Source: Terriglobales bacterium
GTDB lineage: Bacteria > Acidobacteriota > Terriglobia > Terriglobales > SCQP01
DNA length: 36,699 bases
Direction: 5' to 3'
Assembly (NCBI GenBank): GCA_025450725.1
Contig: JANWLQ010000005.1
Location: 1 to 36,699, forward strand
The stretch's first letter is position 1. Each line of letters begins with the position of its first letter. Below, piece by piece: positions 9,711-12,026 of this stretch. A model generated the notes under the pieces. That model was not told where the DNA came from and did not search any database. It saw only the letters and a list, made by a program, of their open reading frames with translations. The translations under genes were made by a program, and so were the position numbers.

Positions 9711-9904
9711 TCAGGTGACCCACCGAATTGCTTGCGCTTCAGGCGCCCGCCGTCCTTCCAGTCGCTGCCGGGTCTCCCCTATATCGGCATCTACCATCAT
9801 GCGTACCAACTCGAGGAAGTCCACACGCGGGCTCCAGTTCAGTACTGATCGCGCCTTGGTGGCGTCATCTAGCAGAGTCTCGACTTCGGCTGGCCGGAAG
9901 TAGC
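9711..9904 (-). pseudogene. gmd: GDP-mannose 4,6-dehydratase 3' remnant, downstream part (interrupted by IS)
   Basis: [41 protein letters not shown] matches the Gmd C-terminus; coding similarity stops at the left IS boundary. Confidence 0.85.
9897..9904. repeat. Target site duplication, left copy (GAAGTAGC)
   Basis: Identical 8-mer at 11955..11962, directly abutting both IS ends. Confidence 0.9.
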
Positions 9905-9944
9905 GGTAATAAATTACTTGACGCACCGTGCCGCAAGGGGTAGG
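9905..9944 (+). repeat. Left terminal inverted repeat
   Basis: GGTAATAAATTACTTGACGCACCGTGCCGCAAGGGGTAGG; 28/40 matches to the right TIR without gaps. Confidence 0.85.
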
Positions 9945-9946
9945 GT
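9918..9946 (+). promoter_or_regulatory. Candidate sigma70-type promoter inside left TIR
   Basis: TTGACG (9918-9923), 17-nt spacer, TAGGGT (9941-9946), then 6 nt to ATG at 9953. Confidence 0.55.
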
Positions 9947-9952
9947 GGGGGG

Positions 9953-10747
9953 ATGGTGCACGATTTTTTGCAAGGCTGGGTCGCTCCGTGCTGGCATTTG
10001 GCCAAACTCGCATGGGGTAATATGATCGCCGCAGGCGGCGTCACCACCCTTGGGGTTGTGGTTTGGCTCTTTATCTTGCCGGGGGCCCTTTGGCTCGCCC
10101 AAAGAGTCGCCGCGTGGTGGCCTCGCAGGAAATCTGCGGGCTCTCTTGTTGCGGCCTTTCGCGGATCGGCACGCGCCGCTCTTGTTGATGCGATCGTTGT
10201 GGTTTGTTTGCTGACCTTGCTCTGGGGGTTATTTTTGCCGCCCACAATCAGGGGCTTGCATCGGTCACTAGTGGCAACCGTGGCCAAACTTCGAGGCGAC
10301 AATAGGCGAATGTATGAGGATCGGCAACATCTCGTCGATCCAAGCCAGTTGCTGTCACAAATTAAATCGTTTACCGACAGGAACCAACTGTTGCAGCGCG
10401 AGATCAATGACCTGACGAACGGACCGATTTTGACGGACGTGTTTAGGTTTCCTAGCCAAGTTCACAACGGCGAATATGGAGACGGATGGCTCTCGGTAGT
10501 TACGGCGCGAAGCCCCAAAAAGCTTTGGAATGTAGACGTGGAGTTGTCGTGTGATTTGGAGGTTACTCCGATTGGGCTCGCCGCGCCGACCGGATCGGAC
10601 TGGATCTCGGGCAGTTCCCACAAGATTGACTCCAAGCACTATAAATTTTCGGAAACTACAGGATGGGGTGGCGCCGACAACCCGCTTCGGATTCCGATTT
10701 TTAGCAAGGAACGTCGCCTGCCGACGTGCTCGGTTGTGCCACAATGA
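9953..10747 (+). CDS. Passenger ORF: putative membrane protein of unknown function within the IS
   Basis: 264 aa; hydrophobic segments [27 protein letters not shown] and [22 protein letters not shown], coiled-coil-like middle, soluble C-terminus; starts at nt 49 of the element. Confidence 0.7.
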
Positions 10748-10948
10748 GTGGTCCTCATGCCGTCCGATGCCTCACGTTTCAATCAGGGAATGGCAGCTCT
10801 ATTTGCCGTGCCCCGCTCGGTCGCGGTAGAGCGTCACGAGGCTCACAAGCGTGCCGCTGCGCTGAATCCAAAGCGGCGCGGACCCAAGCCGAAAAATGCC
10901 CGCGCTTCCCGCGTCCCTGCCGGGGTCGATCAAAAAGCCTCGCGCTGA
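10748..10948 (+). CDS. Small basic hypothetical protein (second passenger ORF)
   Basis: 66 aa (GTG start, or ATG at 10757) MPSDASRFNQGMAALFAVPRSVAVERHEAHKRAAALNPKRRGPKPKNARASR; immediately follows the 264-aa ORF; overlaps the transposase 3' end tail-to-tail. Confidence 0.5.
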   Translation: MVLMPSDASRFNQGMAALFAVPRSVAVERHEAHKRAAALNPKRRGPKPKNARASRVPAGVDQKASR

Positions 10949-11196
10949 TTATCCCCCTTCCCCGTAAGCGTGTCGAACCTGAGCCGCTTACCGGATACTT
11001 GGCTCATTCCGAGGGCAAACCGCTCGGAATCGGTCAGGCGCTTATTGCCCTGCTTTCGATGGTTGTAGCGGAACGCCTGCTCATCCAGGTAGCGGAACAG
11101 GTGGAATAGTTCAACCGAAACGTAGGTCCCATTCAGACCGCGTTTGACCAGACTCCAGTAGTTCTCCATTCCGTTTGTGTGGACCGAGCCATTCAC
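10930..11196 (-). pseudogene. IS1595-family transposase, C-terminal part (frameshifted)
   Basis: VHTNGMENYWSLVKRGLNGTYVSVELFHLFRYLDEQAFRYNHR, the C-terminal catalytic region of ISXO2-like transposases; out of frame with the upstream part. Confidence 0.88.
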
Positions 11197-11906
11197 ATAC
11201 TCGACCGCGTGATTGACACGCCGCGAAGGAAATCGGCCTCCAGGCCGTTGTAGCCTGCGTGCTCATCGCTCATGACCTTCGCGCCGCCCTTGACGTGTCC
11301 GCGGATGATGGGCTGGAGGGTAACACCTTCACGATTGGGGACAACCCTGGTGCGAACCTTCCCGCCTCGCTCCAACATCCCGAGCACGACGGTCTTGCCT
11401 TCGCCCCCGGCCATCTTCCCGAGAGCCATGCGCTTGCGGACGTGCATGTTGCGCGCTTTGCCGCCGATGAAAGTTTCGTCTACCTCGACGCGGCTCCCCG
11501 GCCCGCCGATCTTCCCGCCGCCGTGGAAAGTGTCCTGCATCGCCAGCCGGAGACGATGGAGCATGAACCAAGCCGACTTCTGAGTGATTCCAAGTGTCCG
11601 CGCAACCTCGTAGCTGGAGACGCCGTTCTTGCAGGAAATCAGCATCCAGTAGGCGATCATCCACTTACCAATGTCTATGGGGGAATCCTCAAAGATCGTC
11701 CCTACCTTGATCGTGAATTGCTTCTGGCAGCCCTTGCAGAACCAGAGCCGCCGCGTCTTGACGAAGCGGTTTTGGTCCGACCCACAACGCGGACAGGCAA
11801 CGCCTTCCGGCCAGCGGAGCTTGATGGCATAGGCCAGCGCCTTATCGAGATCGGAGAACATGACCACGGCTTGCTGCAACATTTGCGGAGCTTTTGTGTC
11901 AGCCAT
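11193..11906 (-). pseudogene. IS1595-family transposase, N-terminal part (zinc ribbon plus first DDE residues)
   Basis: CPRCGSDQNRFVKTRRLWFCKGCQKQFTIKVGTIFEDSPI zinc ribbon; VEVDETFIGGK and VMSDEHAGY; terminates prematurely with SITRSSM*. Confidence 0.9.
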
Positions 11907-11912
11907 GAATCC

Positions 11913-11941
11913 AGACTACATCTTGGAGTTCAGTGTGTCAA
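11913..11941 (-). promoter_or_regulatory. Candidate sigma70-type promoter inside right TIR
   Basis: Minus strand TTGACA (11941-11936), 17-nt spacer, TAGTCT (11918-11913), then 6 nt to ATG at 11906. Confidence 0.6.
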
Positions 11942-11954
11942 GTATATTTTTACC
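11915..11954 (-). repeat. Right terminal inverted repeat
   Basis: Minus-strand GGTAAAAATATACTTGACACACTGAACTCCAAGATGTAGT. Confidence 0.85.
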
Positions 11955-11962
11955 GAAGTAGC
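11955..11962. repeat. Target site duplication, right copy (GAAGTAGC)
   Basis: Identical 8-mer at 9897..9904. Confidence 0.9.
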
Positions 11963-12015
11963 GTGGGTCGATTTCGACGTACGCCAGCCGTCGGCCCGCA
12001 GGCCGATGCCGCCCG
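11955..12015 (-). pseudogene. gmd: GDP-mannose 4,6-dehydratase remnant, upstream part on the other side of the IS
   Basis: Removing 9905..11954 plus one TSD copy restores the reading frame [16 protein letters not shown] across the junction; further upstream the frame hits a stop and no more Gmd is seen. Confidence 0.75.
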
Positions 12016-12026
12016 CGAGTGGCGAG

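What the first reader, a model, noticed from the sequence alone, without database searches (positions are those of the whole stretch)
9905..11954. Mirror-image promoters built into both IS termini, each placing an ORF start at nucleotide 49
Left TIR: TTGACG-N17-TAGGGT-N6-ATG (264-aa passenger). Right TIR: TTGACA-N17-TAGTCT-N6-ATG (transposase). The start codon is at nt 49-51 from each end with no gaps in the TIR alignment, and the most conserved TIR positions coincide with the -35 hexamer and the TA...T of the -10. With 6 nt between the -10 and the ATG, transcription would start at or next to the A of ATG, so both mRNAs would be leaderless. The TIR may thus act both as transposase-binding site and promoter, allowing transposase binding to autoregulate both genes and co-express the cargo.
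Basis: partly seen in the sequence, partly recalled or inferred. Interest (0 to 1): 0.78.

Follow-up and report, generated by a model that had tools for sequence, protein, structure and literature searches.

The report
Promoters inside a cargo-carrying IS's ends
A small bacterial jumping gene of the IS1595 family, found mostly in Acidobacteriota, has its gene switches built into its ends: the switch for its own jumping enzyme is nearly always there and sits right against the start codon, and a weaker mirror-image switch at the other end is kept mainly when a cargo gene points inward from that end.

Summary
The element is window 9905-11954 (2050 bp, IS1595 family, 8-bp TSD GAAGTAGC). The hexamers, 17-nt spacers and both ATGs at nt 49 are as described. 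By a generic scan both -10s are weak (3/6), so the case rests on relatives.

I collected 82 elements with TIRs and TSDs. The true TIR is nt 1-25. At the transposase end TTGAC and A38/T42 are almost invariant, at exactly 17-nt spacing, and ATG lies at nt 49-55 in 73/80 with no Shine-Dalgarno. This is a conserved, probably leaderless, TIR-embedded promoter. In distant IS1595 elements the 17-nt spacing holds even where TTGAC moves.

The mirror promoter is conditional. A -10-like hexamer occurs in 30/41 distal ends with an inward passenger, 4/18 with an outward one (p=0.0004), and 7% of internal controls. Distal inner sequences are nearly all mutually unrelated, so this looks convergent. A passenger ATG at nt 49-51 occurs in 8/62 (about 1 expected), but the exact geometry seen here only in 2/82.

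Passengers differ in almost every element; several resemble antiphage-defence genes. Autoregulation is inferred from overlap only. This copy's transposase is frameshifted. Verdict: new variant of a known kind.

The parts
9897..9904 (.). target-site duplication, left copy (GAAGTAGC)
9905..9929 (+). left (distal, D-end) terminal inverted repeat; nt 1-25 is the part shared by both ends across relatives
9918..9923 (+). -35-like TTGACG inside the D-end TIR
9941..9946 (+). -10-like TAGGGT (17-nt spacer), D-end promoter for the passenger
9953..10747 (+). passenger ORF, 264 aa, ATG at nt 49; orphan with hydrophobic N-terminal segments, no Pfam/NCBIfam/PADLOC family at E<=0.001 and only two weak partial matches (E 2e-4, 7e-4) in 399 genomes of the class
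10748..10948 (+). small ORF (66 aa, GTG; ATG alternative at 10757), member of a ~34-residue-core basic protein family found in 67/82 related elements, convergent with the transposase
10930..11906 (-). IS1595-family transposase gene (PF12760 zinc ribbon + PF12762 DDE), ATG at nt 49 from the right end; frameshift at about 11220-11240 splits it into 237 + 88 codons
11913..11918 (-). -10-like TAGTCT of the transposase promoter (17-nt spacer)
11936..11941 (-). -35-like TTGACA inside the T-end TIR
11930..11954 (-). right (transposase, T-end) terminal inverted repeat, nt 1-25
11955..11962 (.). target-site duplication, right copy (GAAGTAGC); flanks read as one GDP-mannose 4,6-dehydratase C-terminal remnant when joined

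Best explanation
This is a cargo-carrying IS1595-family element whose ends carry inward sigma-70-type promoters. At the transposase end the -35 lies inside the 25-nt TIR, the -10 sits 17 nt further in, and the transposase AUG falls on or within a few nt of the expected transcription start, so the mRNA is leaderless or nearly so. Shown: sequence conservation, spacing, lack of SD. Inferred: the actual start site. At the distal end the TIR supplies a -35 that is often degraded, and a -10 is selected separately, mainly when a passenger gene reads inward from that end. In this copy it would drive the 264-aa orphan passenger and probably the 66-aa ORF directly behind it. Because the -35 is part of the transposase-recognition sequence, bound transposase should shut off both promoters (inferred). 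The transposase ORF has no SD, so read-through transcripts from the host should be poorly translated, which would protect against accidental activation (inferred).
For: 82 elements with 8-bp TSD and TIRs. T-end: TTG at nt 14-16 in 81-82/82, A17 81/82, C18 82/82; T37 69/82, A38 80/82, T42 80/82. ATG at nt 49 in 43, 50 in 21, 52 in 7 of 80. SD upstream of those ATGs 0%, against 22.6% of host ORFs (6-7% background), while 5 of 7 late-starting transposases (nt 60-74) have an SD. The -10-to-ATG gap of 6 nt is rare in host ORFs (3.9% vs 1.4% background). 17-nt spacing kept in 11 of 12 distant elements that have TTGAC, including those with TTGAC at nt 17 or 19. D-end: A17 falls to 55/82, separating promoter from recognition constraint. 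-10 score>=3 in 50% of D-ends vs 7% of internal controls; inward 30/41 vs outward 4/18, p=0.0004; D-end nt 26-90 forms 80 unrelated clusters among 82, p=0.0005 after clustering. Passenger ATG at nt 49-51 8/62, expected about 1, p=6e-6; ATG at nt 46-55 associated with a -10, p=0.013. TAnnnT about 12 bp upstream of a start marks bacterial leaderless genes, reported in Acidobacteria among others (PMC3160421).
Against: No transcript data. Both -10s in this copy are weak and a generic scan misses them. The exact D-end geometry of the window is found in only one other element, L076. TTGAC is no better kept in inward than outward D-ends (21/41 vs 10/18). Many inward passengers start later than nt 55. 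Passenger orientation was assigned by ORF length and a codon score, which is noisy. Several classes and thresholds were chosen while looking at the data. The transposase here is frameshifted, so this copy cannot autoregulate unless supplied in trans.
Confidence: 0.72

Rival explanations
1. Only the transposase end is a promoter. The distal TTGAC is there because the transposase needs the same sequence at both ends, and the -10 and nt-49 ATG at the distal end of this copy are chance; the passenger is silent or read from a flanking promoter.
For: The exact mirror geometry is rare (2/82); -35 retention does not depend on passenger orientation; the window's D-end -10 is weak (3.2 bits; missed).
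Against: A -10 in 73% of inward-passenger D-ends vs 22% of outward ones and 7% of controls, in unrelated sequences; ATG at nt 49-51 enriched about eightfold.
Confidence: 0.25
2. The conserved A38/T42 at the transposase end and the D-end hexamers are part of an extended transposase or host-factor binding site rather than a promoter.
For: Position-specific conservation near a transposon end is what a binding site gives; no expression data exist.
Against: The hexamer is not shared by the two ends (identity falls to background at nt 26); at the D-end it depends on passenger orientation; in distant elements it moves with TTGAC and keeps 17 nt; the start codon follows 6-9 nt later.
Confidence: 0.07
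3. Transcripts start at the TIR promoters but are short-leadered and use normal 30S initiation, not leaderless 70S initiation.
For: Start codons at nt 50-55 in 30 of 73 transposases leave room for a 1-6 nt leader; some relatives have SD-led transposases at nt 60-74.
Against: No SD can fit between the -10 and the ATG, and none is found in the nt 49-55 starters; ATG is at nt 49 exactly in 43/80.
Confidence: 0.2

Closest known systems
IS1595 family insertion sequences (PF12762/PF12760, NF033547; Merlin-related)
   Same: Transposase domains, zinc ribbon, 8-bp TSD, TIR starting with GG.
   Different: The published description held here gives a single transposase gene (PMC8101967). These elements nearly all carry a variable passenger and most carry a conserved small basic ORF. 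I recall, but could not check, that IS1595 members with passenger genes have been described before.
Transposase promoters located in or near an IS terminal repeat (IS911 junction promoter, IS10, ISAba3)
   Same: Promoter elements placed in the terminal repeat where transposase binds (review PMC9330008).
   Different: Here a full -35/-10 is read inward from one end with the start codon at the expected +1, and a second promoter of the same layout serves cargo from the other end.
Bacterial leaderless (TA-led) genes
   Same: TANNNT about 12 bp upstream of the start codon, no SD (PMC3160421).
   Different: In host flanking ORFs this spacing is rare (3.9%), but it is the rule for this transposase clade.

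Membership tests
IS1595 family | DDE_Tnp_IS1595 transposase domain with N-terminal zinc ribbon | tested here: met
   PF12762 5.6e-20 and PF12760 2.6e-13; NF033547 above cut-off
IS1595 family | 8-bp target-site duplication | tested here: met
   GAAGTAGC both sides; 8-bp repeats at ends of 82 relatives (required for selection)
IS1595 family | TIRs with terminal GG | tested here: met
   GG at both ends in nearly all elements (GG was also used as a filter when selecting them)
IS1595 family | single transposase gene, no cargo | tested here: not met
   passenger and small ORF present; the source calls this usual rather than required, and domains, TSD and TIR fit, so it is filed as a variant within the family
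IS1595 family | assignment to a named subgroup (ISNwi1, ISSod11, ISPna2, ...) | not testable with these tools
   ISfinder reference elements not available
sigma-70-type promoter | -35 and -10 hexamers with about 17-nt spacing, conserved in relatives | tested here: met
   T-end; D-end in 73% of inward-passenger elements; but this copy fails a generic >=4/6 -10 rule
sigma-70-type promoter | mapped transcription start | not testable with these tools
   no RNA data
leaderless mRNA | start codon at +1, no Shine-Dalgarno | tested here: inconclusive
   geometry and SD absence met; 5' end not mapped
autoregulated IS | transposase binding represses its own promoter | not testable with these tools
   only the overlap of the -35 with the TIR is shown

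The most novel reading that the evidence does not exclude
These elements are a cargo platform: a fixed module (TIR-promoter plus leaderless transposase plus a small basic ORF) combined with an exchangeable passenger, often a defence-type gene. The distal end occurs in two interchangeable states, a built-in promoter serving inward cargo, or a tRNA-Asp anticodon-arm sequence (CCGTGACAGGGC) in elements without near-end inward cargo, which may mark how cargo is acquired or how its transcripts end.
Probability: 0.15. Interest if true: 0.8.

Novelty: new variant of a known kind. Interest (0 to 1): 0.56.

Why it matters
One short terminal sequence appears to carry three overlapping signals: transposase recognition, a -35 box, and, through fixed spacing, a start codon placed at the transcription start. 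Comparing the two ends of many elements separates the signals base by base: A17 is kept almost without exception only at the transposase end. It also offers a simple way for an IS-sized element to carry one self-expressed gene to any site, and several such genes here look like antiphage-defence candidates. Autoregulation and leaderless translation of a transposase become testable with short reporter constructs.

Tried and rejected
A first genome-contig scan with the window transposase found nothing; an alignment of relatives worked. Passenger: no plasmid match, no family at E<=0.001, only two weak partial matches in 399 genomes of the class, weak N-terminal resemblance to the passenger of L073 (E=0.02); no structure predicted because there is no alignment depth. 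A programmed frameshift in the transposase was rejected because relatives encode it in one frame. The idea that GTGACAGGGC at distal ends is a shared passenger start codon was dropped: most occurrences are followed by short or antisense frames. The idea that D-end -10s mirror T-end sequence by descent was dropped: no identity beyond nt 25. Generic promoter scan did not list either site. RNA folding of read-through transcripts failed on length and was not repeated.

Full report
What is there. The element spans window 9905-11954 (2050 bp) and is flanked by the 8-bp repeat GAAGTAGC. Joined flanks read as one C-terminal piece of a GDP-mannose 4,6-dehydratase, so the element sits in a gene remnant. 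It is single copy in its genome, a 75%-complete, 2.5-Mb assembly. The minus-strand gene is an IS1595-family transposase (PF12762, PF12760, NF033547), split by a frameshift at about 11220-11240. The plus strand carries a 264-aa passenger and, directly behind it, a 66-aa ORF.

Is it more than chance? On this copy alone the evidence is thin. Both -10s match TATAAT at only three positions, and a generic scan lists neither. I therefore collected homologues: 70 of 396 genomes of the phylum have the transposase at E<=1e-20, and a scan of named genomes gave 80 further loci, mostly Acidobacteriota such as Granulicella, Edaphobacter and Acidobacterium. Pairing TIRs with 8-bp duplications gave 82 non-redundant elements.

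Transposase end. Per-position counts show TTGAC at nt 14-18 almost invariant, then A38 and T42 in 80/82 and T37 in 69/82, which is a 17-nt spacer. ATG is first found at nt 49 in 43, 50 in 21, 52 in 7, and 53 or 55 in one each, of 80. None of these starts has a Shine-Dalgarno match, while five of seven late-starting transposases do. In host ORFs from the same loci an SD is found in 22.6% (background 6%) and a -10 exactly 6 nt before ATG in 3.9% (background 1.4%). In 12 distant IS1595 elements (29-40% identity) with TTGAC near the end, the spacing is 17 nt in 11, although TTGAC itself begins at nt 14, 17 or 19 and leaders and SDs vary. The TIR-embedded promoter therefore extends beyond this clade, and the leaderless layout is characteristic of the clade.

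Two codes in one repeat. T-end and D-end of the same element agree over nt 1-25 and fall to background from nt 26. Within the shared part, A17 (the A of TTGAC) is 81/82 at the transposase end but 55/82 at the distal end. That base is held mainly by promoter function, while its neighbours at nt 15, 16 and 20-22 are held about equally at both ends. The -35 therefore lies inside the recognition sequence. Repression by bound transposase follows as an inference, not a result.

Distal end. A -10-like hexamer starting at nt 36-39 occurs in 50% of distal ends against 7% of internal positions. Splitting by passenger orientation gives 30/41 for inward, 4/18 for outward, and 7/23 for the rest. Distal nt 26-90 fall into 80 clusters among 82, so these are nearly independent cases (p=0.0005 after clustering). 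Passenger ATG at nt 49-51 occurs in 8 of 62 open frames, against about 1 expected. The window's exact arrangement recurs only in L076. So the mirror promoter is a recurrent and optional adaptation to inward cargo, not a fixed part of the element.

Cargo. 61 inward open frames fall into 39 sequence clusters. That set was taken before orientation was sorted out, and some of them are antisense frames of outward genes. Matches include AbiU/AIPR (L079), a RelA/SpoT protein matching PDC-S33 (L081), a Bro-N protein matching PDC-S13 (L092), DNA methyltransferases (L084, L039), DUF3800, an AbiEii-type AAA protein (L082), a Schlafen-type protein (L045) and a SocA-like protein (L157). No background rate for such matches was computed, so enrichment is an impression. 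The window passenger is an orphan with hydrophobic N-terminal stretches. A small basic ORF with core FERFERAMRKVLRVPKSELKKREKAEKK is present in 67/82 elements, convergent with the transposase.

What is not shown. No transcript, binding or translation data exist here. The leaderless and autoregulated steps are inferences from geometry. Thresholds and orientation classes were set during analysis. The window's own transposase is broken.

Noticed in passing
D-ends of 20/82 related elements, e.g. L094, L138, L145, L035 (nt 37-54 from the end): Motif CCGTGACAGGGC, identical to the reverse complement of the tRNA-Asp anticodon arm of these genomes (6 of 8 genome hits of the 14-mer are in that tRNA context; ARAGORN confirms tRNA-Asp in L186). 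Found in 0/41 elements with inward passengers, 9/18 with outward ones, 11/23 others. Unexplained; could be an attachment-site core, a 3'-end signal or an antisense sequence.
   Followed up: partly
window 10748-10948 and 67/82 related elements: Conserved small basic ORF (about 55-70 aa) convergent with the transposase, without a Pfam or NCBIfam match; possibly an accessory or regulator of transposition.
   Followed up: partly
passengers of L079, L081, L092, L084, L039, L082, L045, L157 and DUF3800 members: Several passengers of these IS1595-like elements match candidate antiphage-defence or toxin-antitoxin genes; no background rate was computed.
   Followed up: partly
window 9714-9904 and 11955-12020: GDP-mannose 4,6-dehydratase C-terminal remnant interrupted by the element; no N-terminal part seen next to it.
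   Followed up: no
window about 11220-11240: Frameshift in the transposase gene, either a real mutation or an assembly error.
   Followed up: partly
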